Part shown: one piece after another, positions 4,257-60,868 of the stretch
Numbering within the stretch: position 1 is the first letter of the stretch
Layout of the letters: each line of letters begins with the position of its first letter
Origin: Bacteroidota bacterium
Lineage (GTDB): Bacteria; Bacteroidota; Bacteroidia; Chitinophagales; Saprospiraceae
NCBI GenBank assembly: GCA_020160935.1
Contig: JAIUPL010000001.1
Location: 1-64,000, forward strand
Reading direction: 5' to 3'
DNA length: 64,000 bases
Notes under the pieces: model-generated
What the model was told of the DNA's origin: nothing
The model's input: only the letters and a program-made list of their open reading frames with translations
The model's database searches: none
Position numbers and translations under genes: made by a program

Positions 4257-4607
4257 ATGCAGAAACTGACCAAAGCGGAAGAAGAAGTCATGCACCTTAT
4301 TTGGGAGATCGGGCGTGGCACTGTGAGCGACCTGCTGGAAAAATTTCCGGAACCCAAGCCGCCACACAGCACCATCTCCAGCGTAGTGCGTATTCTGGAA
4401 AAAAAAGGATTTGTCGACCATAAAGCCTATGGCAAAACCCACGACTATTTTCCTGTCGTATCCAAGGAGGAATATGGCAGCCGTACGCTCGGCGATGTTT
4501 TGCGCGACTATTTCGATGGCTCGGTATCGCGCCTCGTGTCGCACCTGACGGAGGAGGAGAAGTTGAGCCCGGAAGAACTGGATGCTTTACGGAAATTGCT
4601 GGAATAG
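4257..4607 (+). CDS. BlaI/MecI/CopY-family transcriptional repressor
   Basis: Small winged-helix repressor of 116 residues starting MQKLTKAEEEVMHLIW, the standard start of this family; the open frame upstream to 4077 runs through the promoter and is not translated. The HTH covers about residues 5-70 (TVSDLLEKF, PPHSTISSVVRILEKKGFV) and the C-terminal helices are the dimerisation part (SRLVSHL, LSPEELDALRKLLE). In this family the partner metallopeptidase cleaves or inactivates the repressor on a signal. The M56 gene follows in the same direction, separated only by a repeat hairpin that begins at this gene's stop codon. Family certain; signal unknown. Confidence 0.9.
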   Translation: MQKLTKAEEEVMHLIWEIGRGTVSDLLEKFPEPKPPHSTISSVVRILEKKGFVDHKAYGKTHDYFPVVSKEEYGSRTLGDVLRDYFDGSVSRLVSHLTEEEKLSPEELDALRKLLE

Positions 4608-4740
4608 TCCTGAGTCCTGAGTCGTAAGTCCCGAGTCTGTAGAGTACACCTACTTACTCTTGACTTTTGCTGATAACTATTGCCAAGAATAAGCAGGTGT
4701 ACTCTACAGACTCAGGACTTAGGACTCTGGACTTAAGACT
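4606..4740. repeat. Heptamer-armed inverted repeat between blaI and the M56 gene
   Basis: The left arm (4606-4665) has heptamers AGTCCTG, AGTCCTG, AGTCGTA, AGTCCCG and then GTAGAGTACACC. The right arm (4684-4740) is the inverse, ending in GGACTCTGGACTTAAG. The first bases overlap the TAG stop of the repressor gene (4605-4607). Same family as 26319-26452, 34411-34554 and 50391-50524. Its place inside an expected operon suggests an effect on coupling of the two genes (inference). Confidence 0.9.
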
Positions 4741-21325: not shown

Positions 21326-21326
21326 T

Positions 21327-21471
21327 GATTTGACAACTTTTTGAAAGTTGTCAAATCTGGAATTACTGTGTGTTTTGACCGAAGATTTGACAACTTTTTG
21401 AAAGTTGTCAAATCTGGAATTACCGCGTGTTTTGACCGAAGATTTGACAACTTTCAAAAAGTTGTCAAATC
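21327..21471. repeat. Three REP palindromes (TGATTTGACAACTTT family)
   Basis: Three 31-bp palindromes at 21327-21357, 21384-21414 and 21441-21471, each GATTTGACAACTTT, 3-nt centre, AAAGTTGTCAAATC or its inverse. They are spaced by 57 bp, with conserved spacer GGAATTAC-GTGTTTTGACCGAA, so the array is a tandem repeat. The third copy has its centre in the opposite orientation. The same palindrome flanks and enters the transposase gene at 31389-32024. The rest of the gap to 21553 has nothing else. Confidence 0.92.
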
Positions 21472-21553
21472 AAATATGCATTTTTCATGAAAGCAGCATC
21501 ATGAAAGGCGTGCACCCAATTCACTCCTTTTTACAACCAAAAATGCTACTCTT

Positions 21554-23554
21554 ATGAAATTGTCATTTTTCCTTGCCTCCTGCTGGCTGGCTATGGCCGG
21601 CTTGTTTACTGCTACCGATACTGCTACCCTCAAAGGAACTATTACCGACGCACAAAGTGGAGAAACACTCGTTGGAGCCACAATACAGGTACTGCAACAT
21701 AAAAAAACGATAAAAGCCGTTCAATCAGATGTAAACGGAAAATTTACCATTGAGATTCAACCCGGTACGTACGAAGTAGAAGCATCCTACACGGGCTTTA
21801 CCACCGTACGTTATTCAGAGGTGGAAATAAAGAAGGGCGAGAACCAGATTTCTTTCCAACTGCAACCCGGCGCCGTTCTGATGGAGGCCATCGTGACAGA
21901 TTACCGTAGCCCCATTGCAAAAGATGAACTGAGCAGGACGAGCGCCTACATGGAGGGTGAACGCGCTGCCCCCGCCGGCGCACCGGTAGAATACAAGGCA
22001 GTTTCGCCGAAAACCAGGGTGAAAAGCGCGCCTGCTCCTGCCAAGTCCGACCGGGTCAGCCGAGAAGCCCCCGCTACCACAAAAATGGCAGAGCCAGTCA
22101 TCATGGAAGATGTTGCCTACGAAATGACGCCTGCTACCAGCGATGGCCCCCGCGACCGCAGGATGGATGCTGACAAATCTGTACCACCTGTATCCACTAC
22201 AACTCCTGCTCCACGCGCCGGACTGCTCACCGCTGGCGAATGGAACGACCTGCACAACTGGAATCGCCACTGGACCGACCTGCTGGCCGACGGCGAAATT
22301 GCCGAATACCAAAAAATGTATCAGCAATACCCCAGCCAGCGATACACGGTGCTGCTCACCAATTCCAACGACTTCCCGGTGAGCGATGCTTATGTAAAAC
22401 TCAGCACCCGCTCCGGCGAAATACTCTGGGAAAGTCGTACCGACAACACCGGCAAAGCCGAACTCTGGGCAGGCCTTTTCGACAACAAACCGTACGCCGA
22501 CCTGCGCGCCGAAGCCTGGGTAAACGGCCAGAAACACGATCTTGGCCAGCCTAAACCAGCGAAAGATGGCATCAACCGCCACCAGATTCAGGTGGATTGC
22601 AACGCGTCCAAAAAAGTGGACATTGTATGGGCTGTCGACGCCACGGGCAGCATGGGCGATGAAATTGAATACCTCAAAACGGAACTGCTCGATGTGATCG
22701 GCCGTGCGCAGTCGCACAACCGCGAACTGGAATTTCGCATGGGCACCGTGTTCTACCGCGACAAAGGCGATGAATACATCACCAAAAGCAGCGGCCTGAC
22801 GCCGGATATTTCCAAAACGGTCGATTTTATCCGCAAACAGTTTGCCGGCGGTGGCGGCGACTACCCGGAAGCCGTACACAGCGCGCTGGAAGAAACCATT
22901 TTTAGCCAGAAATGGAATGATAATGCCATTGCACGCATCTGTTTCCTCGTGCTCGACGCCAGCCCGCACGCCGACCAACCGGAGGTGATCGCCAGTATCC
23001 AGCGCAGCATCCGCGAAGCGGCGCGCCTGGGTATCCGCATCGTGCCGGTGACTGCCAGCGGTATTCAGAAAGACACGGAATTTCTGATGAAATTTTTCGG
23101 TCTGGCCACCAACGGCACCTATGTTTTCCTGACCGACCACAGCGGTATCGGCGGCCGCCACCTCGAACCCACTACCGACGAATACAAGGTGGAACTGCTC
23201 AATGACTTGCTGGTGCGCCTCATCACGGAGTACACCACCATCAAAACCTGCGAAGGCAAATCGTCTATCCTTTTTGAAAACGACCCGGAACAGCAACAAC
23301 AGCCCAATGCCTCCGACGAAAAAGCCCTGTATTACCCCAACCCGGCCACCACACAATTTACCCTCGAACTGCCCGTAGCCGTAGAGTCCGTTACCATCTA
23401 CGATTCGGAAGGAAAAGCCGCGCGCAAAATAGAACAGCCGCAAGCCGGCCGCCACACGGTCATCGTCAGCGATTTGCCCGAAGGTTTTTACACCATCCGC
23501 ATTTTACGGGCGGGTAAAATGCAGAGCGGGAAGTTAATCGTAATCAGAGCGTGA
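21554..23554 (+). CDS. Secreted vWA protein with carboxypeptidase-regulatory-like and T9SS domains
   Basis: 666 residues. Signal peptide (about 1-20), then a CarboxypepD_reg-like beta domain (about 24-100, LKGTITDAQSGETLVGATIQV), a Pro/Ala-rich linker (about 130-215), a domain of unknown type (about 220-350), a von Willebrand A domain (about 355-550; KKVDIVWAVDATGSMGDEIEY gives a MIDAS-like DxTGS), and a T9SS type A sorting tail (YYPNPATTQFTLEL to the end). It should be a cell-surface or released protein, possibly binding metal or ligands. Its TGA stop lies in the first unit of a GTGAGAG repeat. A long frame on the opposite strand is only a shadow. Confidence 0.87.
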   Translation: MKLSFFLASCWLAMAGLFTATDTATLKGTITDAQSGETLVGATIQVLQHKKTIKAVQSDVNGKFTIEIQPGTYEVEASYTGFTTVRYSEVEIKKGENQISFQLQPGAVLMEAIVTDYRSPIAKDELSRTSAYMEGERAAPAGAPVEYKAVSPKTRVKSAPAPAKSDRVSREAPATTKMAEPVIMEDVAYEMTPATSDGPRDRRMDADKSVPPVSTTTPAPRAGLLTAGEWNDLHNWNRHWTDLLADGEIAEYQKMYQQYPSQRYTVLLTNSNDFPVSDAYVKLSTRSGEILWESRTDNTGKAELWAGLFDNKPYADLRAEAWVNGQKHDLGQPKPAKDGINRHQIQVDCNASKKVDIVWAVDATGSMGDEIEYLKTELLDVIGRAQSHNRELEFRMGTVFYRDKGDEYITKSSGLTPDISKTVDFIRKQFAGGGGDYPEAVHSALEETIFSQKWNDNAIARICFLVLDASPHADQPEVIASIQRSIREAARLGIRIVPVTASGIQKDTEFLMKFFGLATNGTYVFLTDHSGIGGRHLEPTTDEYKVELLNDLLVRLITEYTTIKTCEGKSSILFENDPEQQQQPNASDEKALYYPNPATTQFTLELPVAVESVTIYDSEGKAARKIEQPQAGRHTVIVSDLPEGFYTIRILRAGKMQSGKLIVIRA

Positions 23555-24207
23555 GAGATGTGAGAGGGTGAGAGAAGTGAGAGATTTGTCCTAAAATAGG
23601 TTTACACGAAAAGTAAACTAAAAACAGGACAAAGATGAAAAGAGAGCGAAGAATTGGCTGAATTAAAGGCTGAATGGGCAATTCTAAAACGGGAATTGGA
23701 GGACGAGCGCTTGCGTCGGCAGGCGTATCAATTGATGGTGAAGATAGAGAAGAGGAATTTAATATCCCGATCGAAAAAAAGTTTGGTGTCAAACAGCGCA
23801 AAAAATGAAAGACCTGCATCCACAATTGCCTTTAGGGCGTTTGTGTGGGCTGTTTGACAAGGGTCGTCAATCCTTTTACCAAAGGCAAACAGGTCATATA
23901 TGGGCAAGCATTAGAGGAGCATTTTATCCTTAGTCAGGTACAAGGCAGCCGGAAGCGCCAGCCGAGGATAAGTGTGAGGAAGTTGTTGGTGAAATTGGAG
24001 GAAATCGGGATTCAGATCGGCCGGGATGCGCTTTTTGATATGTTACGGCAGAATGGACTGCTGGTCAGGCGGCGCCGAAATGGGGCAAGAACGACCATAT
24101 CGTAGCGAAGCGGTACACTCTACGCACTCTCACTTCTCTCACTTCTCTCACTCTCTCACTTCTCTCACTTCTCTCACACCTCTCACTCTCTCACCCTCTC
24201 ACTCTCT
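23549..24207. mobile_element. IS3 remnant flanked by inverted GTGAGAG/CTCTCAC arrays
   Basis: The left array (23549-23590) has GTGAGAG units; the right array (24124-24207) has about twelve CTCTCAC or CACTTCT units in the inverse orientation. Between them is a broken IS3-type transposase. In other gaps such arms enclose only a short loop, so it seems that an insertion sequence landed in the loop of a repeat element and then decayed, or that the arms assembled around it. Confidence 0.65.
23636..24105 (+). pseudogene. Degenerate IS3-family transposase (OrfA C-term and OrfB N-term)
   Basis: Pieces of two reading frames align by eye with IS3 transposases. The first (about 23636-23812) gives LAELKAEWAILKRELEDERL and, after a frameshift, EEFNIPIEKKFGVKQ, the end of OrfA. 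The second starts at 23804 (MKDLHPQLPLGRLCGLFDKG, then RQSFYQRQ) and, in a different frame from about 23920, gives the HTH segment RKRQPRISVRKLLVKLEEI and GRDALFDMLRQNGLLVRRRR of OrfB. The DDE catalytic domain is absent, so it cannot transpose. Confidence 0.8.
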
Positions 24208-25028
24208 AAAAACCTGTATCTCATTATCAGTCCTTCTCCTTTTTTCCCCTCGCTGCTCAGTACCAGGTCGCCATTAAAGTCGAAGGAAATGCCTTCGGGT
24301 TGTGGAAGCATTTTTTTATCGAGGCGAATGGCATATTTGATGACGCCTGTGGCGTAGTCGAGTACGACAAGGCGTTTTTGTGCCGAAGAAAGCACGTACA
24401 CATCGCCGGTGATCGGATGAACGGCAATGCCAGAAGGGCTAAAGAAATGCTCGTTTTCTCCCGGAATGTGCGGTACCAAGCGATTTACTTCCAGCGGATC
24501 TACCGTATACACGGGCTGATCTGACAACTTTTTACTGTTCAGGTCGAACGCATAGATTTTTCGCAGGTAACTACTGTCCGTATTTCCCTTGCAGGCCATG
24601 AGCAAAGCGTTGCGTTTGGCATCATAGCCCAATCCCTCCACATCGTCCTCTTTACGCAGAGGGGTTTCATATTCACGCACTGATGGACTTTTGCGCTTCC
24701 AGCGGCCTATTTCAAAAACATCTCCATTGCTTTTGACAGCGAACAGGCAAGGACCGACCATTTCTACGCCTTCAAAGTCGCCTTTGTCGCGAAACAGTAC
24801 CCGGCGGGTGATCGCGCCGCCACCGGCGCCGTCTACAAAGAAAATTTCTCCCTTTTCATCGGCAATAGCGAGGTATTGGCCCTCAACGTCGGTTGGACTG
24901 AGGCCAGAAATCTCACGCAGGTCCTCACTGACGAGGTTGATGATATGGGAAGGATTTGCCAGATTATACGGCAGCGTATCAGGCGGGGTAATCGACAGAC
25001 ACAAGCCGATCGAGAGGAACAGGTTCAT
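24183..25028 (-). CDS. SdiA-regulated-domain-like secreted beta-propeller protein
   Basis: 281 residues. A short N-terminal hydrophobic stretch (about 1-15) looks like a weak signal peptide. The body matches the SdiA-regulated / phytase-esterase-like propeller: SHIINLVSEDLREISGLSP, LAIADEKGEIFFVDG, GDFEGVEMVG, DDVEGLGYDAKRNALLMACKG and FSPSGIAVHPITGDVYVLSS, PEGISFDFNGDLVLSSEG. Function unknown. The last seven residues (ESERVRE) are the same as those of the YigZ protein and come from the CTCTCAC repeat, so this C-terminus is repeat-derived. Confidence 0.82.
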   Translation of the reverse strand: MNLFLSIGLCLSITPPDTLPYNLANPSHIINLVSEDLREISGLSPTDVEGQYLAIADEKGEIFFVDGAGGGAITRRVLFRDKGDFEGVEMVGPCLFAVKSNGDVFEIGRWKRKSPSVREYETPLRKEDDVEGLGYDAKRNALLMACKGNTDSSYLRKIYAFDLNSKKLSDQPVYTVDPLEVNRLVPHIPGENEHFFSPSGIAVHPITGDVYVLSSAQKRLVVLDYATGVIKYAIRLDKKMLPQPEGISFDFNGDLVLSSEGKKGEGLIMRYRFLESERVRE

Positions 25029-25124
25029 AAGCGTTTGATTTATCGGAACAAAAGGAACAGTACATTGCTTCTAAGCAAACACACTGTTTCTGATAACGTT
25101 CAAACCCCCGAACCGTGTTTCATT

Positions 25125-25559
25125 TTACTCCGAAAAAACTTCGATTTCGTGTGTTTTTACCACTAAGTCGGTAAATTTCCCTTTAAAACGGGTGGCTTTC
25201 ACGATGTGGTTGTCGATCCAGTGGTAGTTGCCGCCACGTGGTTTACCGAACAGGATACCGTGGTATTTGAAGCCATGTTTGGCGAGCCATTGCTCTGTCA
25301 CTTCGCGGTGCGCTTCCGTACGGCTGGTGAAGAAAAAGATTACGTGGCCTTCGTCGTACCAGCGATTCAGCATTTCCAGTGCATCTGGATAAGGCAAAAT
25401 AGTGCCCATACGCTCCGGTTCTTCATTCGGAACGTCGTCGCAAATGGTACCGTCAATATCGATGAGAAAGTTCTTGATATGCTGAGGGAGGATCGGGCTG
25501 AGGCGTTCGCCCTTTTCGTTGAAAATTTCTTTTAAGTTCTGCTCGGATTGATCTTGCAT
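25125..25559 (-). CDS. HAD-superfamily phosphatase-like protein
   Basis: 144 residues. HAD motif I is FLIDIDGTICDD (about 30-41; DxDGT), motif II is VIFFFTSRTEAHREVT, and the C-terminal part has the lysine region LFGKPRGGNYHWIDN. Short for a HAD enzyme and without a cap domain. Relatives in Bacteroidota are often labelled phosphoheptose isomerase, but the visible motifs are those of a HAD phosphatase, so that label is doubtful. Substrate unknown; a sugar phosphate is possible. Confidence 0.8.
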   Translation of the reverse strand: MQDQSEQNLKEIFNEKGERLSPILPQHIKNFLIDIDGTICDDVPNEEPERMGTILPYPDALEMLNRWYDEGHVIFFFTSRTEAHREVTEQWLAKHGFKYHGILFGKPRGGNYHWIDNHIVKATRFKGKFTDLVVKTHEIEVFSE

Positions 25560-25690
25560 GACTTTTTAATTGGTGTAAAATTGACGCAAAGGTACGGCGT
25601 ACAATTGATTATTGCCCGTCTGCAACTGCAAACATTAAGTAAAGACTAATGATTACTGTTAAACAAATGACAAAATAACATCATTTTATG

Positions 25691-25755
25691 TGCCAAATCC
25701 TCGCTTCGCTGTTTGTAATAACAACTTCATACAGCGAGGGTTGTGACATTTGGCA
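25691..25755. other. Interrupted inverted repeat before the NlpC/P60 gene
   Basis: TGCCAAAT (25691-25698) pairs with ATTTGGCA (25748-25755), and inside it CCTCGCT pairs with AGCGAGG. The structure ends about 60 bp before the start codon at 25815, so it would form in the 5' leader or act as a protein site. The rest of the gap 25560-25690 shows nothing definite. Confidence 0.4.
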
Positions 25756-25814
25756 TGGTCTTTTCCGCCTGCTATCGCCCACCGCCTTCCGATTATCCGT
25801 TCAACCTGCATACT

Positions 25815-26327
25815 ATGCGCCCAAGATTTGCTCCCGGCATCGTGTTTAGCCTGATTTTACTTTTTGTTGCCTGCAACACGACCAAAAAGTCGGCCAGCAA
25901 GCCGGATGTCCCTGTCAAGCCTTCCAATTCCGCCAATATGCAATTGCGCAACCGCGTAGTCGCCTATGCACAGAAATATGTCGGCTCGCCCTACAAATAC
26001 GCCGGTACCAGCCCGTCAGGGTTCGATTGTTCGGGCTTTACCAGTTATGTGCTCAAGGAATTTAATGTAAAAGCCTCTCCGGCTTCGGCTATACAGGCCA
26101 AAGAAGGCCGATCGGTTTCTATCGATAAAGTCAAACCGGGCGACCTTGTTTTTTTTGGTGAAAATTCCAGTCACATCTCACACGTAGCCATGGTGGTCAA
26201 ACGCTCCAAAGAAGGCATTGTATGCGTTCACAGCACCACCAGCCGGGGCGTGATTGTGGAAAACGTGAGTACATCGACGTACTGGAAACCAAAGATTTTG
26301 TTTGCAAGAGACTTAATTAAGTCCTAA
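25815..26327 (+). CDS. NlpC/P60 (C40) cell-wall hydrolase lipoprotein
   Basis: 170 residues from ATG 25815. A lipoprotein signal (MRPRFAPGIVFSLILLFVAC) predicts a lipid-anchored Cys20. The NlpC/P60 domain covers about 45-165: catalytic Cys in SGFDCSGFTSYV, His in SSHISHVAMV and a third polar residue in VCVHSTTSRG. Such enzymes cut D-Glu to diamino acid bonds in peptidoglycan stem peptides. The frame is open to 25743 but the signal peptide fixes the start. The stop TAA lies inside the first heptamer of the repeat (AAGTCCTAAG), giving a KS end. Confidence 0.9.
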   Translation: MRPRFAPGIVFSLILLFVACNTTKKSASKPDVPVKPSNSANMQLRNRVVAYAQKYVGSPYKYAGTSPSGFDCSGFTSYVLKEFNVKASPASAIQAKEGRSVSIDKVKPGDLVFFGENSSHISHVAMVVKRSKEGIVCVHSTTSRGVIVENVSTSTYWKPKILFARDLIKS

Positions 26328-26452
26328 GTCGACAGTCCTGAGTCCTGAGTCCCAAGTCCGTAGAGTAGACCGCGTTGCTCTTGGCGTTTATACATCTGTA
26401 TCCAAGAACAGCGCGGTCTACTCTACGGACTTAGGACTCAGGACTCAGGACT
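26319..26452. repeat. Heptamer-armed inverted repeat shared by two convergent gene ends
   Basis: The left arm (26319-26383) and right arm (26401-26452) contain AGTCCTG/AGTCCTA heptamers, then GTAGAGTAGACCGCG and CTCTTGG, in inverse order on the right. Both flanking genes end inside it: the C40 gene at TAA 26325-26327 and murF (minus strand) at TAA 26431-26433, each from a TCCTAAG unit. Same family as 4606-4740, 34411-34554 and 50391-50524. Confidence 0.92.
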
Positions 26453-27744
26453 TTTTCAAGTCTCACGCCCCTGGATCCTTTCACCAGGATCAGGGCGCGC
26501 TCCAACTGTTGTGCATCGAGCCAGGCCTTAGCGGCCATGTTGTCGGGGAAATGAAGGGCGCCATACCGTTGATAGGGTGTTTTCCCAAATTCCTTTCCAA
26601 CCAGCACGATCTGATCGAGGCCCATTTTAGAGGCGAGCCGCAGGATGGCGGCGTGTTCTTTTTCGCTGTTTTCGCCCAGTTCGAGCATATCCCCGAGAAT
26701 GGCGATTTTGTATTTGGCCGACATGGCTTGCAGGCTTTTGAGGGCTGGCTCCATGCTCGAGGGGTTGGCATTGTAGGCATCGAGCAGCACGGTATTGCTA
26801 CCCATTGAGATAACTTGAGAGCGATTATTGGAAGGTTGGTAGGCTTCCAGTGCCGATTTGATGGTGCCCGCTGGCACTTTAAAATAAATGCCCAGCGCGA
26901 TAGCGGTCATAATGTTGTTAAAATTATGCCGCCCAAACAGGTGTGTACGCACTTCCACCCGCGGGCCTTCGTCCGACAAAAAAGCGGCTTCCACAAACGG
27001 CATATCCCGGAGCAATTGCACTTCTATGCTGCCGTTGTTGGGATTGAGCACGGCCGATTCGCGGTATTCGATGCGCAGTTTGTTGCGGCGTGCCATGGCA
27101 GGCAGGTATTTTTCCGACATATTGAGAAATACGCAGCCGGAGTGCCTGGCGAGGTACTGGTAGAGTTCTCCTTCCGCTTTTTTCACACCGGCGAGGCTGC
27201 CGAAGCCTTCCAGGTGTTCTTTCCCTATATTGGTGAGCAGGCCGTGTGTAGGCCTGGCTATGCGGCACAGCAATTCGACGTCGCCCGGTTGGTTGGTACC
27301 CATTTCAATAACGGCTACTTCCGTTCCGAGGGGCATCGACAGCAGTGTAAGTGGTACGCCTATATGGTTGTTGAGGTTTCCTTTGGTGAAATGGCAGGGA
27401 TAGTGGCTGCTTAAAACACTGGAAACCAATTCTTTCGTGGTGGTTTTTCCATTGGAACCGCCAATGGCAATAACCGGTATATCGAATTGCATCCGATGAT
27501 GCGTGGCGAGTTGCTGCAAGGCTTCCATCACATCCGGAACGAGGAAATAGCGATCGTCGATGCGGTATTTTGGGTCATCGATTACGGCTACTGCAGCGCC
27601 ATTTTCCAGGGCTTGTGCAGCAAATGCATTGCCGTCGAAACTGGCGCCTTTCAGGGCAAAAAAGATACATCCCTGCGGCAAATTGCGGGTGTCGGTGCTT
27701 ACCACCGGGTGCTGGCGGAAAATGGAATACAGTGCGTCCATCAT
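26431..27744 (-). CDS. murF: UDP-MurNAc-tripeptide--D-Ala-D-Ala ligase
   Basis: Adds D-Ala-D-Ala to the cytoplasmic peptidoglycan precursor. 437 residues from ATG 27744 (or 436 from 27741). The N-terminal domain has VVSTDTRNLPQGCIFFALKG; the ATP site is AIGGSNGKTTTKELV; the central domain has VIEMGTNQPGDVELLC and TNIGKEHLEGFGS; the C-terminal Mur ligase domain has LLDAYNANPSSMEPALK and AILGDMLELG. The last six residues (KVLSPES) are translated from the repeat element. It is 19 bp downstream of kdsA and likely in one operon. Confidence 0.94.
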   Translation of the reverse strand: MMDALYSIFRQHPVVSTDTRNLPQGCIFFALKGASFDGNAFAAQALENGAAVAVIDDPKYRIDDRYFLVPDVMEALQQLATHHRMQFDIPVIAIGGSNGKTTTKELVSSVLSSHYPCHFTKGNLNNHIGVPLTLLSMPLGTEVAVIEMGTNQPGDVELLCRIARPTHGLLTNIGKEHLEGFGSLAGVKKAEGELYQYLARHSGCVFLNMSEKYLPAMARRNKLRIEYRESAVLNPNNGSIEVQLLRDMPFVEAAFLSDEGPRVEVRTHLFGRHNFNNIMTAIALGIYFKVPAGTIKSALEAYQPSNNRSQVISMGSNTVLLDAYNANPSSMEPALKSLQAMSAKYKIAILGDMLELGENSEKEHAAILRLASKMGLDQIVLVGKEFGKTPYQRYGALHFPDNMAAKAWLDAQQLERALILVKGSRGVRLEKVLSPES

Positions 27745-27763
27745 TTTCAGTGGGTTTATTCCA

Positions 27764-28576
27764 TCAACGAATGGCTTCACGGATGCGTACGAGGCGTTCG
27801 AGCAGGGGTTCCAGCCGGTCGAGCGGCAGCATGTTGGCGCCATCCGATTTTGCTTCTGAAGGTTTGGGGTGCGTCTCAATGAACAAACCGTCGGCTCCTA
27901 CGGCAATACCTGCTCTTGCAATGGTTTCGATGAGCGCCGGACGGCCGCCGGTCACTCCGCTGCTTTGGTTGGGTTGCTGGAGCGAATGCGTGCAATCGAG
28001 CACAACGGGCGCTCCGAAAGATTGCATGACGGGCAGCCCGCGGTAATCGACGATCAGGTCCTGATAGCCGAAGGTAGTGCCGCGCTCGGTCAGAATCACC
28101 TTTTGGTTGCCTTCCTCGTTCACTTTTTCCATGGCAAATTTCATAGCCTCTGGGGCTACAAACTGCCCTTTCTTGATGTTTACCACTTTACCAGTTTGGG
28201 CGGCAGCCACCAGAAGGCTGGTTTGGCGGCACAAAAACGCAGGGATTTGGAGAATATCCACATACCTGGCAGCCATGGCCGCCTCGGGGTCGCTGTGGAT
28301 ATCGGTCGTAGTGGGCAGGTCGAGTTGTTGCCCGATGTCTTTCAAAATACCCAATGCCTTTTCATCGCCAATACCCGTAAAGGAGTCGCGTTTGCTGCGG
28401 TTGGCCTTGCGGTAAGAGCCTTTAAAAATATAGGGAATGCCGAGGCGCTGGCATATATCGCGCACCTGTCCGGCAATGTCGAAAGCCATTTGTTCGCCTT
28501 CAATGGCACAAGGCCCGGCGATGAGAAAAAAATTGCCCGAATCGGTGTTTTTTAACCGGGGAATGTCGAATTGCAT
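27764..28576 (-). CDS. kdsA: 3-deoxy-8-phosphooctulonate (KDO-8-P) synthase
   Basis: Condenses arabinose 5-phosphate and PEP to KDO-8-phosphate, the first committed step for the KDO of LPS. 270 residues from ATG 28576 (MQFDIPRLKNTDSGNFF). Signature segments are LIAGPCAIEG, FKGSYRKANRSKRDSF, TDIHSDPEAAMAARYVDILQIPAFL, KKGQFVAPEAMKF, LTERGTTFGYQDLIVD and VVLDCTHSLQQPN. The presence of this gene supports a Gram-negative outer membrane with LPS. The frame is open to 28660 but those residues are not conserved. Confidence 0.95.
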   Translation of the reverse strand: MQFDIPRLKNTDSGNFFLIAGPCAIEGEQMAFDIAGQVRDICQRLGIPYIFKGSYRKANRSKRDSFTGIGDEKALGILKDIGQQLDLPTTTDIHSDPEAAMAARYVDILQIPAFLCRQTSLLVAAAQTGKVVNIKKGQFVAPEAMKFAMEKVNEEGNQKVILTERGTTFGYQDLIVDYRGLPVMQSFGAPVVLDCTHSLQQPNQSSGVTGGRPALIETIARAGIAVGADGLFIETHPKPSEAKSDGANMLPLDRLEPLLERLVRIREAIR

Positions 28577-28614
28577 GGTCACAAAAATTGAAACAGAACG
28601 GGGTTTGGCGGGTG

Positions 28615-28646
28615 CAAAAGTTGCGCTTTTGGGGAAATTTTCCAAA
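28615..28646 (-). promoter_or_regulatory. kdsA-murF promoter
   Basis: On the minus strand TTTG (28646-28643), 20 bp, then AACTTTTG (28622-28615), one mismatch from TAnnTTTG. It is about 40 bp before the kdsA start. A GTTTTCAAAAC palindrome (28661-28671) lies just upstream. Confidence 0.5.
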
Positions 28647-28738
28647 CCCAAACAAAACAAGTTTTCAAAACAACAAACTGATTATCAATTGGTTATTGAC
28701 ATCAATAAAAAATTTTATAAAAAATAATTTTAAAAATA

Positions 28739-28769
28739 TTTGTTTTAAAAAACAACTTGTTTATTTTTG
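28739..28769 (+). promoter_or_regulatory. Promoter of the AntA-like gene
   Basis: TTTG at 28739-28742, 19 bp, then TATTTTTG at 28762-28769, which fits the Bacteroidota pattern fully. The start codon is about 57 bp further. The surrounding 150 bp are much more AT-rich than the coding regions. Confidence 0.65.
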
Positions 28770-28786
28770 TATTGTTTTTAAAACAA
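28740..28786. promoter_or_regulatory. Paired GTTTT-AAAAC operators around the AntA-like promoter
   Basis: Two palindromes share arms TTGTTTT and AAAACAA: 28740-28755 (2-nt centre, over the -33 box) and 28772-28786 (1-nt centre, just after the -7 box). Their centres are about 31-32 bp apart, three helix turns. A third copy of the core GTTTT-C-AAAAC is at 28661-28671 by the divergent kdsA promoter. This layout suggests a repressor that controls one or both promoters; the protein is unknown. Confidence 0.5.
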
Positions 28787-28826
28787 ATTCAAGCATTCAA
28801 TCTAAACAGCATAAAATCAGCGAGTT

Positions 28827-29249
28827 ATGGCACTGGAAATTCTGGAAAGTAAAAAAGGTACCAAGGTTGTCACCGCTACTAATCTTCATACCGCCCTCAA
28901 ATTGTCGGTCCGCCAGTACGGCGCGCAGGTACGTAAATGGTTGCGCGACGCCTACGAATTCGAAGATGGTATCCGCCGTCCGCAGATGTATCGCGACTTT
29001 GCCAAGCGCCCGCGCCCCGGCGAACCGGTAGAAGATTTTTACCTGACCCTTGAACTGGCCAAACTGATTTCCCTGCGCAGCAGCAGCAAAGACAAGTTGA
29101 AATACGCGCGCCTTTTGGATGTCTACGAGCACAATGGACAAATGAGTTTGTTCCACACCAGTCATCCGTCGACCGTTGGCAGTCAACAGCCGGCAGTCAA
29201 CAGCCATCAGACAGGGGTTGTCAGTCGGCAGCCTACTGCGATCGGGTAG
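28827..29249 (+). CDS. Stand-alone AntA/AntB-like antirepressor domain protein
   Basis: 140 residues. Residues about 14-100 resemble the phage AntA/AntB antirepressor fold: TNLHTALKLSVRQYGAQVRKW (LH...F..W pattern), then EDFYLTLELAKLISLRSSSKDKLKYARL, which matches the YYLSLDMAKELAM..NEKGR region. No other phage gene is nearby. Some Bacteroidota carry such proteins outside prophages; their role is unknown. The last 25 residues (about 116-140) are translated from a 7-bp repeat (GGCAGTC, AACAGCC) and are probably an added tail. The promoter has paired operators. Family call is by pattern only. Confidence 0.6.
   Translation: MALEILESKKGTKVVTATNLHTALKLSVRQYGAQVRKWLRDAYEFEDGIRRPQMYRDFAKRPRPGEPVEDFYLTLELAKLISLRSSSKDKLKYARLLDVYEHNGQMSLFHTSHPSTVGSQQPAVNSHQTGVVSRQPTAIG
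29178..29205. repeat. Heptamer repeat inside the AntA-like coding end
   Basis: GGCAGTC and AACAGCC alternate twice (a perfect 14-bp unit), followed by diverged copies to about 29232 (GTCAGTC, GGCAGCC). It encodes the Ser/Gln/Val-rich tail of the preceding protein. Confidence 0.7.
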
Positions 29250-29362
29250 AGCGTGTTTTAATTTCAGCAACAGGGGCAAAACAAAAAAACCCGCAAGCCG
29301 GATCTCGGCTCACAGGTCACTATGCATTTGTAGTATACTGGTTTTGAAGGAGCAGGGTTGGA

Positions 29363-29417
29363 GCGCGGCGTATGCAAGATGCCAAATTGCTTCGGCCAGC
29401 CCTCATACGCCGTGCTT
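29363..29417. other. Hairpin between AntA-like and response regulator genes
   Basis: AGCGCGGCGTATG (29363-29375) pairs with CATACGCCGTGCT (29405-29417) with one mismatch and a 29-nt loop. It lies between the ends of two convergent genes and may act as a shared transcription stop, although no T-run follows. Confidence 0.45.
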
Positions 29418-29434
29418 TCTATCCAAGACTTTTG

Positions 29435-30169
29435 TCAATGTGCGTTGGCTACATCTTTCACCAACAACTGAAATCCATTGCCATGTATATTGACAATTTC
29501 GATGGCTGAATCCTTGGCCAGGTATTTTCTCAACTTGGTTACGAACACATCCATTGAGCGGGCAGTGAAGTAGTTGTCTTCATGCCAGATTTTGGTAAGG
29601 GCTTCCGAACGCGGCGTCACATCGTTCATGTAACGACAGAACATTTTGAGCAGTTCCGCTTCTTTGGGGCTTAATTTCCATTGATTTTCTTCGCCTGGCG
29701 CAGCGTCGGTGAATGTGAGGATACGCACTGGAAAATTGAAGTGATATTTTCCGATGGTGTATTCCCGTTGCTCATCGCGTGGGTCGGGCGCTTTGTTGAC
29801 GCGTTTCAGTACTGCCTGGATACGCAGCAACAGTTCTTCAGAATTGAATGGTTTGGAAATATAGTCGTCTGCGCCGATTTTAAATCCTTGCAGTACGTCA
29901 TCTTTCATGGTTTTGGCAGTCAGGAAAATGATAGGCACCTCCTGATTGCGTTCCCGGATTTCGCGGGCGAGTGTGAAGCCGTCTTTGCGCGGCATCATAA
30001 CGTCGAATACGCAGAGGTCATAATGACTTTTGCGGAAGGCCTCGAGGCCGAGTACCCCATCGGTTGCAAGGGTCACATCGTAATCGTGCATCTCGAGATA
30101 GGAACGGAGGACGTCGCCAAAATTTTGGTCGTCTTCCACCAGCAGAATTTTGTAGTTAGCACTTGCCAT
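29435..30169 (-). CDS. OmpR/PhoB-family response regulator
   Basis: 244 residues. The receiver domain (about 5-125) has the acidic pocket EDD, phospho-acceptor Asp in CVFDVMMPRKDGF, Thr in FLTAKT and Lys in YISKPF. The C-terminal winged helix (about 145-235; LSPKEAELLKMFCRYMNDVTPRSEAL, then the wing near TARSMDVFVTKLRKYL) is the Trans_reg_C type with the Bacteroidota RprY-like form. It binds DNA as a phosphorylation-controlled activator. No histidine kinase gene is next to it, so it is an orphan in this window. Confidence 0.92.
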   Translation of the reverse strand: MASANYKILLVEDDQNFGDVLRSYLEMHDYDVTLATDGVLGLEAFRKSHYDLCVFDVMMPRKDGFTLAREIRERNQEVPIIFLTAKTMKDDVLQGFKIGADDYISKPFNSEELLLRIQAVLKRVNKAPDPRDEQREYTIGKYHFNFPVRILTFTDAAPGEENQWKLSPKEAELLKMFCRYMNDVTPRSEALTKIWHEDNYFTARSMDVFVTKLRKYLAKDSAIEIVNIHGNGFQLLVKDVANAH

Positions 30170-30294
30170 ACAGTTCGGTCAGTGGTTCATGTGATTAGAA
30201 TTCGGTTGCGAAGGAGGATTGGTTAGGTGTTGTTTTGTATGTTAACGTTTGTGTGGTGCATTACAGTATGTGAGAATGGCAAGAGAAAGGAAAT

Positions 30295-31317
30295 TTGTTA
30301 AAATTATATATTTTGGAACGCTTCATTTCACACGCGCCATCAGGCGTCAGTGTTTGCTTTCATGAGATCGCTTATCACATTTCCAGGCATTTGTCACAAG
30401 CAGAGTCAAGTATATGCATCGCTGTCTGCTGGTTTTCACATCAAAATATTTTTGATGTACTGTTGAACAGACTTCGCGCCGGTGTAACTGTGGAACTTGT
30501 AATTGAATATGATACGCAGAATATTCGTCCTGATGGACTTGATTTTCAGCGTTTTATAGAAAGTGGAGGGCTGCTTTTCGGTCATCTGAGGTCAGATTTA
30601 ATGCACCATAAGTTTTCTGTCATCGACAACAGGATACTCATTTCGGGCTCTTTCAATTGGACATACAATACCAATGCAGAAAATATTATGGTGACCCATG
30701 ATCTATCGTGCATCAAGGCTTTCCAAGAAGAGCATCAACAGTTGAAAAAAATCTCCAAGCGAATTCTCCACGTCAATCCCTCAGATGCCAAGCATTTTGT
30801 TCCTTTTCCTTTGTTTGAAAACACATTATTTACACTGACTGATTTGCGAAGGAAAATTGGCGGCGGCACAAGTGTTTGGGTTGTTAAAGCAGATCGAAAA
30901 AATATCATTGATACTGACTTTTTCAAGAAGAATCAATTGTATTTCGATGAGCATGGGTTGCTCAAACCTTATTGGGATTTATATCGAAGATGGTCTGATA
31001 CACTATTTGAATCAATTTTGGGGGATTGCAATATTTCACCCAACAAACGTCGGGAAATCATTTGCTGGGCCCACCGTGTGAAAATCGGCGATATTGTGAT
31101 ACTCACTGATAATAAATCTCCTGTACTTTTTGCTATCGGCATCGTTCAGTCAGAGCCGAAAATGCTTGTAGGCAATTTTTTTTCAACTTATCGAGAAACC
31201 CAGTGGCTACATGTAATGCCGCACAAAAATTATCGACTACCTGAAAAAGTGCCACAGTATCGGATAGGCAAATACAAGGGTTCTGCTCTGCGCATCTTGC
31301 AGGAGGCTATGGCATGA
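30295..31317 (+). CDS. PLD-family nuclease with EVE/PUA-like C-terminal domain
   Basis: 340 residues, notably AT-rich compared with neighbours. A single HKD motif is intact: His104-x-Lys106-x4-Asp111 in HHKFSVIDNRILISGSFNWT, with Gly118/Ser119; proteins with one HKD motif usually work as dimers, and many are nucleases (Nuc/BfiI type). Residues about 258-320 (VKIGDIVILTDNKSPVLFAIGIV, then RETQWLHVM) have the GD-x-V...GIG-V...R-x-V-x-W pattern of EVE/PUA-like modified-base readers, as in McrB-type N-domains. A nuclease joined to such a reader points to defence against modified or foreign DNA (inference). The start is TTG at 30295; the true start is uncertain. No methylase or partner gene is adjacent; the RAYT follows. 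Confidence 0.7.
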   Translation: MLKLYILERFISHAPSGVSVCFHEIAYHISRHLSQAESSICIAVCWFSHQNIFDVLLNRLRAGVTVELVIEYDTQNIRPDGLDFQRFIESGGLLFGHLRSDLMHHKFSVIDNRILISGSFNWTYNTNAENIMVTHDLSCIKAFQEEHQQLKKISKRILHVNPSDAKHFVPFPLFENTLFTLTDLRRKIGGGTSVWVVKADRKNIIDTDFFKKNQLYFDEHGLLKPYWDLYRRWSDTLFESILGDCNISPNKRREIICWAHRVKIGDIVILTDNKSPVLFAIGIVQSEPKMLVGNFFSTYRETQWLHVMPHKNYRLPEKVPQYRIGKYKGSALRILQEAMA

Positions 31318-31388
31318 TGTACTTGTTTTCAGATTGGATACGACTTTTAAAAGTGTTGTAAAATCTCCTTCATCCGCGCTTTTCATTT

Positions 31389-32024: not shown

Positions 32025-32155
32025 TTTGACAACTTTAGAGGACGTTTTAGATTTGACAACTTTCGAAAAGTTGTCAAATCTCTAGCATCCAGGCAGTCGT
32101 TGCACGAGCAGGAGGCGTTTTTTAGATTTGACAACTTTCGAAAAGTTGTCAAATC
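32023..32155. repeat. REP cluster downstream of the RAYT gene
   Basis: A half REP (32023-32036, GATTTGACAACTTT) is followed by full 31-bp palindromes at 32050-32080 and 32125-32155 with identical centres (TTTCGAAAAG). The half copy provides the RAYT stop TGA. The last copy ends on the stop codon of the convergent esterase gene (TGATTTG on the minus strand). A weak, degenerate copy may also lie upstream of the gene near 31335-31366. Confidence 0.92.
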
Positions 32156-33401: not shown

Positions 33402-33472
33402 GCAGATAGTCATATATACAACAACGTACATTTTATGTTTTCCATGATAAATATAACTGATTTTCCCAATGA

Positions 33473-34435
33473 ATGGCTTCTTATGGTATTCTGCCCCGAT
33501 CTACCTTTGATCCACACAAAAACAACTGCCTCTTGCTCACCTCTCGCCGTTCCCTGCTTTTTGGCGTACTCATTCTCGCCGTTGCCAATATCTGTTTTTC
33601 AGCCAAGGCTGTGATCATCAAACTCATGTACCGATATGAGGTATCTACCCAGTCGGTGATTGCGTTGCGTATGTTGTTTTCTCTGCCCGTTTATGTAGCC
33701 GTGGCCTGGTACTTGCACCGACGTACCAACAACGTGCAACTCACCCGGAACGAATGGATGGCCATCAGCGGGCTGGGCATTTTGAGTTACTATATTTCCA
33801 GTATGCTCGATTTCTGGGGATTGAAATATGTGACAGCGGGCGTGGAGCGACTGATTTTGTACACTTACCCGACTATCGTGTTGCTGTTGTCGGCTGTGCT
33901 GTTCAAAAAAACCGTCACGAGGGTGCAGTATGCTGCATTATTGCTCACTTATGCCGGCGTAGTACTGGCGTTTGTAGCCGAAAAAGGCTTGGGCGACCAG
34001 CGCAACCTCTTGCTGGGAGGCGCGCTCATTTTTGCTTGCGCTATTACTTATTCATTTTATGTAGTGTACACAGGTGAATACGTGCACAAGGTGGGGTCGG
34101 CAAAATTTACCTGTTATGCTGTGATGGCAGCCACCGTTCCAGCCCTGATTCAATCTTACCTGCACGATGGCATGGATTTATTTCATTTTCCGCGACAGGT
34201 GTATATTTTATCTGGATGGATTTCCATTGTATCAACCGTGTTACCTACATTTCTGGTGGTAGAGGGCATTCGCATCGTTGGCGCCAACAATTCCGGCATT
34301 ATAGGACTAATCGGGCCGGTAGCGACGATTGTGCTTGGATATGTATTCCTGGGCGAACCCATAACGCCCTTGCAGGTACTGGGAACGGGAGTGGTGTTGG
34401 TAGGGGTGTTAAAAGTCCTGAGTCCTGAGTCCTAA
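33473..34435 (+). CDS. EamA/DMT-family transporter
   Basis: 320 residues with about ten membrane helices in two EamA repeats (first about 25-160, second about 175-310). Typical segments are SAKAVIIKLMYRYEVSTQSVIALRM, LTYAGVVLAFVAEKG and PVATIVLGYVFLGEPITPLQVLGTGVVLVGV. Such carriers export small metabolites or nucleotide sugars; the substrate is not clear. It ends in KVLSPES, encoded by the repeat element, exactly as murF does. Divergent from the esterase gene. Confidence 0.88.
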   Translation: MASYGILPRSTFDPHKNNCLLLTSRRSLLFGVLILAVANICFSAKAVIIKLMYRYEVSTQSVIALRMLFSLPVYVAVAWYLHRRTNNVQLTRNEWMAISGLGILSYYISSMLDFWGLKYVTAGVERLILYTYPTIVLLLSAVLFKKTVTRVQYAALLLTYAGVVLAFVAEKGLGDQRNLLLGGALIFACAITYSFYVVYTGEYVHKVGSAKFTCYAVMAATVPALIQSYLHDGMDLFHFPRQVYILSGWISIVSTVLPTFLVVEGIRIVGANNSGIIGLIGPVATIVLGYVFLGEPITPLQVLGTGVVLVGVLKVLSPES

Positions 34436-34554
34436 GTCCTGAGTCCGTAGAGTACACCTTAATACTCCAGGCATTCCATATAATTAATGCTAGTGTATAA
34501 AGATGTACTCTACGGACTCAGGACTTAGGACTCAGGACTCAGGACTCAGGACTT
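34411..34554. repeat. Heptamer-armed inverted repeat at two convergent gene ends
   Basis: The left arm (34411-34457) has AGTCCTG units then GTAGAGTACAC; the right arm (34503-34554) has the inverse with seven GGACTCA-type heptamers. The DMT gene stops at TAA 34433-34435 and the cytochrome gene (minus strand) at TGA 34546-34548, both inside heptamers. The loop is longer and AT-rich (34458-34502). Confidence 0.92.
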
Positions 34555-37539: not shown

Positions 37540-37557
37540 GGGTGTGCGCGGTGTGAG

Positions 37558-39348: not shown

Positions 39349-39349
39349 A

Positions 39350-48430: not shown

Positions 48431-50392
48431 ATGTCGCCTTCCGACCACTTCCACCACCTGCTTAGTCTCCTCGCCCGCGAACGCGACGAAGACCTGCAGG
48501 AATACTTGCGCCAGATACGCGAACGGCCGCTCCCGGAACGCGTGGAGCGTGGCTACAGTTGGTACCCCCTGCAAATTGTACAAACGGGTTTTGCCCTGGG
48601 CGACAAGGCTTTTGTGGTAGTGGAACGCACTACGCGCCGCGACGAACCGCACCAGTTGCGCGCCGGCCAGACGGTGCGTTTCTTCACTCAGTCGCCACAC
48701 GTAAAAGACCCTGACAAACAAGGGGTTATCAACTACGTGGAGCGCAATCGAATGAAAATCGTGCTCAATGCCCGCGATGTGCCCGACTGGATTACCTTCG
48801 GCCAACTCGGTGTCGATCAGTTGTTCGACGACCGCAGTTACCAGGAGATGGAACGCGCCCTGCACAAGGTGATGCAGGCAAAAGGCGACCGGCTGGCCGA
48901 ACTGCGCGACATACTGACCGGCCGCAAAAAACCGGCGGACATATTCGAATCCACCCCTGTTCAACTTCCCGGCCTCAACGACAGCCAGAACGCTGCCGTA
49001 ACGGCCGTACTCGCCAACCGGGATGTAACGGTCATCCACGGCCCGCCGGGCACCGGCAAAACAACTACGCTGGTAGCCGCCATTGCCCAGATGGTGCAAA
49101 AAGAAAATACAGTGCTCGTCTCGGCTCCCAGCAATACAGCAGCCGACCTGCTCACCGAACGCCTCGCCGCCGCGGGCGTACAGGTGGTGCGTGTGGGCAA
49201 CGTGAGCCGCATCGATGAATCGGTGATGCAGCACACCCTCGACAGCATCATCGCCCGGCACCCGGAAAGCAAAAACATCAAAAAAGTAAAAATTCAGGCG
49301 GCCGAATTCAGGCGGCAGGCGCGGCAGCACAAGCGCAGTTTCGGCTACGAAGAACGCCGCGAACGCGAACACCTCAAACACCAGGCCCGCGAACTGGAAT
49401 CCTGGGCCGCCAGCCTCGAAGAACGCCTGCTGGAGCAAATTCTTAGTTCGGCACAGGCCATTACCTGCACGCTCGTCGGTGCGGCGCATCCGGTGCTCGA
49501 CAAGTACCGATTCCACACCTGCGTGATGGACGAAGCAGCGCAGGCGCTCGAACCGGCGGCCTGGATACCGATTGCCAAATGCAGTCGCGTGGTACTGGCC
49601 GGCGACCCGTTTCAGTTGCCACCCACCGTAAAAAGTATGGAGGCCGCGCGTGGCGGATTGTCAAAAACACTGATTGAGCGTTGCCTCGAATTGCTGCCGG
49701 ATGCAGTACACCTGCTCGACGTGCAGTACCGCATGCACCAGTCGATCATGGATTTTTCCAACCAGTATTTTTACGACGGCGCTTTGAAAGCCCACGATTC
49801 AGTGGAGGGCCGCCGATTGCTCAGCCTCGACCCTGGCGGAGAAATCGTGACTGTGTTCGAGCCGGTGCTTTTTGTAGACACGGCCGGAACGGGTTTTGAA
49901 GAAAAAATCAACAAGGATACAGCCAAAGACTCCACCCGCTATGCCAGCAAGTACAACCCCGAAGAGGCGCTTCTACTGCGCGAGCACTTGCTGCAATTGC
50001 TCGAAAAATTTCCCGATCCCGATCATTTTCCCAGCATCGGGCTCCTGTCGCCGTACCGCGAACAGGTGAATTACATGGAAGATATGGTGCGCGAAGATGA
50101 GGTGCTTTCGCCGCTCTTTGCCGACAGCCAGATCGTGGTGAATACCATCGACGGCTTCCAGGGCCAGGAACGCGATGTGATTTATATCAGTCTGGTGCGC
50201 TCCAACCCCAAATCCGAAATCGGGTTCCTCAGCGACTACCGCCGTATGAACGTAGCCATGACCCGCGCCCGAAAATTACTGGTGGTCATCGGCGATTCAG
50301 CGACGATTGGCAACAACGCGTTTTATGCCAAATTTCTGGCGTATTGCGAGGAAAAAGGAGGATATGAGTCGGCATGGGTGTATTTTAAGTAG
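48431..50392 (+). CDS. IGHMBP2/SMUBP-2-like SF1 DNA/RNA helicase
   Basis: 653 residues from ATG 48431 (MSPSDHFHHLLSLLARERDEDL). The N-terminal beta-barrel domain (about 40-175) precedes the SF1 motor: Walker A GPPGTGKTTTLVAAI (motif I), VSAPSNTAADLLTERL (Ia), VMDEAAQALEPA (II, DEAA), AGDPFQLPPT (III), QYRMHQSIM (IV), STIDGFQGQERD-type VNTIDGFQGQERDVIYIS (V) and NVAMTRARKLLVVIGD (VI). A helical stalk lies at about 285-360. Such enzymes unwind DNA or RNA in a 5'-3' direction. The stop TAG adjoins the repeat at 50391. The frame upstream to 48359 is not conserved. Confidence 0.92.
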   Translation: MSPSDHFHHLLSLLARERDEDLQEYLRQIRERPLPERVERGYSWYPLQIVQTGFALGDKAFVVVERTTRRDEPHQLRAGQTVRFFTQSPHVKDPDKQGVINYVERNRMKIVLNARDVPDWITFGQLGVDQLFDDRSYQEMERALHKVMQAKGDRLAELRDILTGRKKPADIFESTPVQLPGLNDSQNAAVTAVLANRDVTVIHGPPGTGKTTTLVAAIAQMVQKENTVLVSAPSNTAADLLTERLAAAGVQVVRVGNVSRIDESVMQHTLDSIIARHPESKNIKKVKIQAAEFRRQARQHKRSFGYEERREREHLKHQARELESWAASLEERLLEQILSSAQAITCTLVGAAHPVLDKYRFHTCVMDEAAQALEPAAWIPIAKCSRVVLAGDPFQLPPTVKSMEAARGGLSKTLIERCLELLPDAVHLLDVQYRMHQSIMDFSNQYFYDGALKAHDSVEGRRLLSLDPGGEIVTVFEPVLFVDTAGTGFEEKINKDTAKDSTRYASKYNPEEALLLREHLLQLLEKFPDPDHFPSIGLLSPYREQVNYMEDMVREDEVLSPLFADSQIVVNTIDGFQGQERDVIYISLVRSNPKSEIGFLSDYRRMNVAMTRARKLLVVIGDSATIGNNAFYAKFLAYCEEKGGYESAWVYFK

Positions 50393-50524
50393 TCCTGAGT
50401 CGACAGTCCTGAGTCCTAAGTCTGTAGAGTACACCTGATTACCCTTGGCTTTTTTAAAAAGAGTACGAAGGGTAATCAGGTGTACTCTACAGACTTAGGA
50501 CTCAGGACTGTCGACTTAGGACTT
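50391..50524. repeat. Heptamer-armed inverted repeat between helicase and moxR
   Basis: The left arm (50391-50448) and right arm (50467-50524) are reverse complements of about 57 bp with one or two mismatches: AGTCCTG/AGTCCTA heptamers, GTCGAC, then GTAGAGTACACCTGATTACC. The loop is about 18 nt (GCTTTTTTAAAAAGAGTA). Most regular member of the family. Confidence 0.93.
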
Positions 50525-53479: not shown

Positions 53480-53487
53480 GGGGAAGG

Positions 53488-57503: not shown

Positions 57504-57539
57504 TTGATTTTTATTGGTTGAAAAGGAGATATGGGTGGG

Positions 57540-58350: not shown

Positions 58351-58356
58351 AATAAA

Positions 58357-60790: not shown

Positions 60791-60868
60791 GTAAGAATGA
60801 TTGTGCTTTGTCGCAAAGGTATATCAGGCTACGGAACAAATGATGAACCAGGTTGGTTGCGATCTGGA

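What the first reader, a model, noticed from the sequence alone, without database searches (positions are those of the whole stretch)
26319..26452. Repeat element supplies the stop codons of both convergent genes
The C40 peptidase gene (plus) ends at TCCTAAG of the left arm and murF (minus) ends at TCCTAAG of the right arm. MurF has the tail KVLSPES, coded by AGTCCTGAGTCCTGAGTCC. So the element replaced both native gene ends. A mobile or amplifying repeat that carries in-frame stop codons could spread into gene ends with little damage; I know of no named element that works this way.
Basis: partly seen in the sequence, partly recalled or inferred. Interest (0 to 1): 0.82.

Follow-up and report, generated by a model that had tools for sequence, protein, structure and literature searches.

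The report
Palindromic repeat that caps gene ends
A roughly 130-base palindromic DNA repeat scattered through this uncultured Saprospiraceae genome sits against the ends of genes and often supplies their stop codons; related repeats are known to do this, but here the seven-base arms can stop a gene in any reading frame, and occupied positions seem to outlast the sequences that fill them.

Summary
At 26321-26452 a palindrome with heptamer arms (GTCCTGA/GTCCTAA, read inward) supplies both stops: C40 peptidase ..ARDLI|KS* and MurF ..RLEK|VLSPES*. About 180 copies occur in the genome.

In a 1.2 Mb sample, 44 copies face 60 gene 3' ends: 22 stop codons lie wholly inside an arm, 5 straddle its edge, 28 lie up to 12 nt outside, 5 farther. 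None of 28 facing 5' ends overlaps an arm. All three frames are used, and each stops within 21 nt.

The stops explain intrusion into genes, not location at gene ends. Stop-rich and stop-poor arm families abut gene ends equally (64/140, 58/125), but stop-rich ones intrude 6 nt or more far oftener (31/140 versus 4/125).

The principle is in print: REP termini providing stop codons (PMC3733652), heptamers stopping all frames (PMC4679880). This is not a canonical REP: its GTAG is paired.

Unexpected: four relatives hold four different elements between murF and C40. At five sites holding this family in two relatives, the cores are no more alike than random copies. Position persists; sequence does not.

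The parts
26321..26355 (+). left arm: GTCCTAA GTCGACA GTCCTGA GTCCTGA GTCCCAA, read inward; first heptamer holds the C40 stop
   Evidence: sequence; arm edge and stop offset 7 nt
26356..26430 (.). 75-nt hairpin core GTCCGTAGAGTAGACC...GGTCTACTCTACGGAC
   Evidence: aligned with 25 other cores, 13 of 22 stem pairs with changes on both sides
26431..26452 (-). right arm: GTCCTGA GTCCTGA GTCCTAA read inward on the minus strand; encodes VLSPES* of MurF
25743..26327 (+). C40 (NlpC/P60) peptidase gene ended by the left arm; start codon uncertain (my caller chose a later start)
26431..27744 (-). murF, ended by the right arm
34415..34552 (.). second copy: ends an EamA transporter gene (..LVGVLK|VLSPES*) and a cytochrome c-domain gene (..LR|KS*)
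4607..4739 (.). third copy, after a plus-strand gene whose TAG stop straddles the arm edge
50392..50522 (.). fourth copy, after a plus-strand gene whose TAG stop straddles the arm edge

Best explanation
It is one copy of a dispersed, non-coding palindromic DNA element of about 130 bp that behaves like a REP or MITE, one of many element families in this lineage with the layout [tandem short repeats]-[hairpin core]-[the same repeats inverted] and different arm sequences. Shown: about 180 copies; placement against gene 3' ends; arms whose 7-nt unit holds a stop codon, so that reading into the element stops within 21 nt in any frame (7 is not a multiple of 3); use of all three frames by genes; arm-encoded tails shared by unrelated proteins. 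Inferred: copies spread as DNA; insertions survive where they do little harm, mainly just after stop codons and between convergent genes; because the arms stop every frame, insertions into the last codons also survive, and the element then becomes the new gene end. The stops widen the set of tolerated sites; they do not bring the element there. The enzyme that moves it is not identified.
For: Copy number against controls. 22 of 60 facing stops inside an arm, 5 straddling, 28 within 12 nt outside; 0 of 28 facing 5' ends overlapping; offsets 7, 14, 21 nt in 11, 3, 8 cases. Intrusion of 6 nt or more: stop-rich clusters 31/140, stop-poor 4/125, p=2.6e-6; without the GTCCTGA cluster 14/79 versus 4/125, p=6e-4; by single arm, 23 of 92 with all three frames closed versus 12 of 173 without. 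Where the element overlaps a coding end, the tail differs from the relative's (EamA: LKVLSPES* versus GMLTFRK*). Stem covariation without wobble intermediates: one pair U-A 14, C-G 11, C-A 1, G-U 0; G.U 91 versus A.C 89 mismatches in co-directional repeats, p=0.94. No consistent target-site duplication: exact direct flank matches 6, 0, 2, 0 of 44 at 2, 3, 4, 5 nt.
Against: Stop content is not general: of 48 arm clusters 18 have more frames closed inward than outward, 24 fewer, 6 tie; the same core occurs in G006 and G016 with GTGCGAA arms whose unit has no stop. A random heptamer array closes all frames with probability 0.36, so the property may be luck. Near-stop placement in convergent pairs is close to a per-pair null (42 of 77 versus 0.45, although 0.026 if weighted by spacer length). 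Clusters are few, so copies are not independent tests. Genes come from my own simple caller.
Confidence: 0.75

Rival explanations
1. Position-locked slots: an occupied junction stays occupied while its palindrome is overwritten or replaced again and again by other copies or other families (ectopic conversion through the shared arms, or loss and re-insertion), each time remaking the gene ends. This can hold together with the best explanation.
For: murF-C40 holds four different elements in G000, G039, G006, G016. 6 of 6 checkable G039 sites of this family are occupied in G000, five by the same family and one by a GTGAGAG-armed element. In those five the core is no closer to its counterpart than to random copies (38, 17, 27, 42, 31 of 43 other copies at least as similar). 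With G016 and G006, 19 of 25 junctions occupied in G000 are occupied in the relative, against 24 of 66 empty ones; by eye the arms differ in all 19. Flanks outside the arms are inverted copies of each other more often than expected (3 nt or more 16 of 44 versus 5.1).
Against: Six sites only with G039. Per class only co-directional junctions are significant (p=0.011; convergent 0.17, divergent 1), and some junctions count twice. Junctions that tolerate one insertion tolerate the next, so re-use needs no mechanism. Very fast compensatory mutation would look alike.
Confidence: 0.3
2. A selected 3'-end hairpin: a two-way transcription terminator or mRNA 3'-end protector kept next to stop codons for that function.
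For: Repeats lie in 79 of 161 convergent, 107 of 547 co-directional and 19 of 160 divergent pairs (repeats counted); in co-directional pairs they sit nearer the 3' end than uniform placement gives (mean relative position 0.267, n=107, p=9e-15).
Against: No T-tract asymmetry: 2.26 T in the 8 nt after the hairpin versus 2.21 on the other side, p=0.80. No wobble bias, though long stems make that test weak. Arm identity varies widely between families.
Confidence: 0.15
3. Targeted insertion: the mobile element selects stop codons or gene ends as target.
For: 55 of 60 facing 3' ends between 21 nt inside and 12 nt outside; 85 of 88 arm edges preceded by A.
Against: Short spacers and avoidance of 5' regions give much of the same pattern; no transposase identified; the A may belong to the element.
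Confidence: 0.15
4. A REP moved by one of the Y1 (RAYT-like) transposases of the genome.
For: Two Y1_Tnp genes; GTAG in the core; REP-like location; no consistent target-site duplication.
Against: No motif of this family in 10 kb and 8 kb around the two genes, which have other palindromes beside them; a GTGAGAG-armed element with a related GTAGAGTG core lies about 3.4 kb from one. GTAG is paired, not free.
Confidence: 0.15

Closest known systems
GTAG- and CGTC-tagged REP elements (Di Nocera et al. 2013, PMC3733652; abstract, outline and sections 15 and 16 read)
   Same: High-copy palindromes mostly between convergent or co-directional genes, most convergent ones under 20 bp from both 3' ends; [quoted passage not shown]
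   Different: REPs are 20-40 bp with an unpaired GTAG or CGTC tag and no heptamer arrays; here about 130 bp, GTAG paired inside the stem, arms that stop all three frames
TAACTGA heptamer direct repeats (MacGregor 2015, PMC4679880; abstract, passages and section 12 read)
   Same: Tandem heptamers whose forward strand stops all three frames; [quoted passage not shown] reported in five Bacteroidetes
   Different: Other heptamer, not palindromic elements, mostly just upstream of start codons in the main genome studied
Enterobacterial RU/ERIC elements in genes (Delihas 2007, PMC2759123; passages only)
   Same: Short repeats of 103-168 bp that can replace the end of a coding sequence
   Different: RU-1 carries an open frame and extends the amidase ECA3499 by 35 residues; here translation stops within 21 nt
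MITEs (general knowledge; PMC5896051 seen only in the listing)
   Same: Short, non-autonomous, terminal inverted repeats, many copies
   Different: No consistent target-site duplication and no autonomous parent found in what I looked at

Membership tests
GTAG REP | 20-40 bp unit | tested here: not met
   cores of 74-77 nt plus arms of typically 28 nt each side
GTAG REP | GTAG tag unpaired at one end of the hairpin | tested here: not met
   GTAG (columns 5-8) pairs with CTAC in all 26 aligned cores, once as A-U at column 5
GTAG REP | cognate RAYT gene flanked by the repeat | tested here: not met
   both Y1_Tnp genes found lack this family's motif in the 10 kb and 8 kb fetched; genome 97.9% complete, so a third gene could be missing
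GTAG REP | located mainly at gene 3' ends, can supply stop codons | tested here: met
MITE | terminal inverted repeats and many copies | tested here: met
MITE | target-site duplication | tested here: not met
   exact direct flank matches 6, 0, 2, 0 of 44 at 2, 3, 4, 5 nt; palindromic flanks make this test hard
MITE | autonomous parent with the same ends | tested here: inconclusive
   five loci with unpaired arm motifs showed no larger element; no genome-wide search for widely spaced arm pairs
TAACTGA heptamer repeats | TAACTGA unit in direct repeat | tested here: not met
   unit is GTCCTGA/GTCCTAA in inverted arms
intrinsic terminator | hairpin followed by a T tract on the exit side | tested here: not met
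   2.26 versus 2.21 T of 8, p=0.80, over co-directional repeats of all families
Rfam families | match above the gathering score | tested here: not met
   window 20000-40000: 15 hits, all below gathering, 12 of them microRNA-hairpin models; rest of window not searched

The most novel reading that the evidence does not exclude
Gene ends in this lineage carry position-locked palindromic slots whose sequence is overwritten repeatedly by competing heptamer-armed families: the occupied junction is retained across relatives while the element is exchanged, each time remaking the stop codons and last residues of the flanking genes, murF among them.
Probability: 0.3. Interest if true: 0.78.

Novelty: new variant of a known kind. 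Interest (0 to 1): 0.56.

Why it matters
It gives a simple, testable rule: a repeat unit whose length is not a multiple of three and which holds one stop codon stops every frame within three units, so it can land in gene ends at low cost. Stop-rich and stop-poor families side by side in one genome test the rule (31/140 versus 4/125 intrusions). The turnover at fixed positions, if it holds, would make bacterial gene ends places where mobile palindromes keep rewriting C-termini.

Tried and rejected
Y1/RAYT link: two Y1_Tnp genes, neither with this family's motif in the 10 and 8 kb fetched. Terminator: no T-tract asymmetry, no wobble bias. 'All families carry inward stops': rejected; 18 of 48 clusters have more frames closed inward, 24 fewer, 6 tie; the overall excess (mean 1.85 frames inward, 1.07 outward, 1.49 shuffled) comes mainly from the two largest clusters. 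Larger parent element: none in five loci with unpaired arm motifs; incomplete. Rfam: only sub-threshold hits in 20000-40000. A named Saprospiraceae element in print: searches listed none that I recognised; the library is open-licence PubMed Central only. Limits: single-linkage arm clusters merged GTTGATGA with GTGAGAG arms; family differences at the 19 doubly occupied junctions were judged by eye; the shuffled control was one mononucleotide shuffle of 400 kb.

Full report
What is there. At 26321-26452 a palindrome lies between a plus-strand C40 (NlpC/P60) peptidase gene and a minus-strand murF. Its arms are heptamers, read inward mostly GTCCTGA, GTCCTAA or GTCGACA (five on the left, three on the right), around a 75-nt hairpin core GTCCGTAGAGTA...TACTCTACGGAC. 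C40 ends ..ARDLI|KS* with its TAA in the first left heptamer; MurF ends ..RLEK|VLSPES* with its TAA in the third right heptamer.

Copy number. The motif is far above chance in the window (19 against 0.07 expected) and in the genome (84 exact 17-mers against 0 for the reversed control; 176+185 arm/core motifs against 1+2): about 180 elements in 5.8 Mb. The core 12-mer is abundant in G000 (114+117) and G039 (112+113), less so in G006 (24+17) and G016 (24+29); 22 of 60 genomes, own included, have any match, and the other 18 have 12 or fewer.

Position relative to genes. I took 1.2 Mb of the own genome in stretches, called genes with a simple hexamer-based caller and searched for inverted repeats with arms of 24 nt or more: 210 found, none in one shuffled 400 kb control. 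Of these, 205 are intergenic with both neighbours called (79 convergent, 107 co-directional, 19 divergent, out of 161, 547 and 160 gene pairs), 2 lie inside genes and 3 lack a neighbour. Of 265 facing 3' ends, 72 overlap the repeat by 1-25 nt and 79 lie 0-9 nt away; of 145 facing 5' ends none overlaps and 7 lie 0-9 nt away. For the family in question 53 core pairs were found; 9 were left out because their core is not 70-80 nt (8 with GTGAGAG arms, 1 a doubled copy). The other 44 face 60 gene 3' ends: 22 stops wholly inside an arm, 5 straddling its edge, 28 up to 12 nt outside, 5 farther; none of 28 facing 5' ends overlaps, 5 are within 12 nt. Stops inside lie at 7, 14 and 21 nt (11, 3, 8 cases), the three frames. 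Tails recur in unrelated proteins: VLSPES ends MurF and an EamA transporter, KS ends eight proteins.

What the stops do. If stop codons make such placements tolerable, families without them should rarely intrude into genes. Intrusion of 6 nt or more is seen at 31 of 140 facing ends for stop-rich arm clusters (mean of at least 2 frames closed in the outer 30 nt) against 4 of 125 for stop-poor ones (p=2.6e-6); without the GTCCTGA cluster 14 of 79 against 4 of 125 (p=6e-4); by single arm 23 of 92 against 12 of 173. Abutting a stop is equally common in both (64/140, 58/125). So the stops explain intrusion, not location. Location follows partly from short spacers: convergent pairs without an element have a median spacer of 24 bp; both sides within 12 nt is seen in 42 of 77 convergent pairs, against 0.45 if each pair is equally likely to be hit and 0.026 if longer spacers are hit more. 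In co-directional pairs the 3' side is within 12 nt in 54 of 104, against 0.37 and 0.077. A random heptamer array closes all frames with probability 0.36, so the property may have arisen by luck. It is not general: the same core has GTGCGAA arms without a stop in G006 and G016, and most clusters show no inward excess.

C-termini of relatives. At 91 junctions conserved with G016 or G006, 29 of the 34 gene ends that an element abuts without overlap of 3 nt or more have 0-2 residues beyond the aligned part (my count); where it overlaps, tails of 0-11 residues follow, for example EamA LKVLSPES* against GMLTFRK*. At murF-C40: G000 RLEK|VLSPES*; G039 RLESV|VLSPKS* (read from the sequence), same family, junction shifted by 3 nt; G006 RLEKLIERVDGG* with a GGTTGATGA-type element; G016 RLEKLVI* with an AAGATGT-type element. 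For C40, G039 reads ARDVISPKS* against ARDLIKS* in G000.

DNA or RNA. In 26 aligned cores 13 of 22 stem pairs have changes on both sides; one pair is U-A 14, C-G 11, C-A 1, G-U 0. In all co-directional repeats G.U and A.C mismatches are equal (91, 89), and the exit side has no T-tract bias. Own arms match better than arms of different copies (upper stem 0.873 versus 0.632). I read this as pairing kept at DNA level. There is no consistent target-site duplication: 6, 0, 2, 0 of 44 exact direct flank matches at 2, 3, 4, 5 nt. Flanks outside the arms are inverted copies of each other more often than expected (3 nt or more 16 of 44 against 5.1; 6 nt or more 5 against 0.12); one of those five, the 20-nt run, is extra arm sequence.

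Turnover at fixed positions. Of 25 conserved junctions occupied in G000 (G006 and G016 pooled, some counted twice) 19 are occupied in the relative, against 24 of 66 empty in G000; co-directional p=0.011, convergent 0.17, divergent 1. By eye the arms differ in all 19. One junction scored empty in the relative (L103) holds a GTGAGAG palindrome that my finder missed. For G039, one search gave 30 loci, 26 of them distinct sites; four have a conserved junction in my G000 sample (L188, L191, L210, L211), and two more come from L179 and L180. One site (L182) is rearranged, four match on one side only, the rest do not match. All six conserved ones are occupied in G000, five by the same family and one by a GTGAGAG-armed element. 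In the five, the core resembles its counterpart (0.70-0.79) no more than random copies do (38, 17, 27, 42 and 31 of 43 other copies at least as similar), although the flanks are about 80-90% identical. Re-insertion, ectopic conversion or very fast compensatory change could explain it; I cannot separate them.

Known or new. [quoted passage not shown] PMC4679880 notes that forward TAACTGA heptamers give stops in all three frames and overlap ORF ends. The principle is thus in print. The combination here (palindrome, stop-bearing heptamer arms, both convergent genes ended, contrast between families, turnover) did not appear in six literature searches, read as listings and a few papers only.

Noticed in passing
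53485-53702, 57533-57720, 60867-61003: GTTATGA-armed palindromes (ATAACTC arrays) with GTAC near the start of the core, another family of the same layout.
   Followed up: partly
1042-1163, 7262-7397, 3944-4041, 58207-58351: Further long palindromes of other arm families (GTTGATGA/GTTGATAA arrays; GGATTAGAAGGATT; CTTTGTG; TTAGTTATTGG), most next to a gene 3' end.
   Followed up: partly
21322-21488, 31603-31655, 32045-32172: Repeated short palindrome GATTTGACAACTTT..AAAGTTGTCAAATC, three copies in a 57-bp tandem at 21327-21497.
   Followed up: no
23540-23600: The gene 21554-23554 ends inside a GTGAGAG array (..IRA*) in G000; in G039 the orthologue stops natively and an element of the GTCCTGA family follows 11 nt later (L181 7801-7920).
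   Followed up: partly
L177 4583-4677; L178 2105-2237 and 2900-3045: The two Y1_Tnp genes of the genome (outside the window) lie beside other palindromes, GGGCGTTGCCCT.. and GTTGGCGAGGACGCCAAC.., possibly REP systems of their own.
   Followed up: partly
L103 and L104 (G016 C508, C282): G016 holds two contigs for the same EamA/cytochrome c junction, each with a different palindrome, perhaps a strain mixture in the MAG.
   Followed up: no
L111 16500-16637, L105 2637-2720, L120 11902-12058: Relatives carry GTGCGAA-armed elements, some with the same GTAGAGTACACC core, so arms appear to be exchanged as modules between cores.
   Followed up: partly
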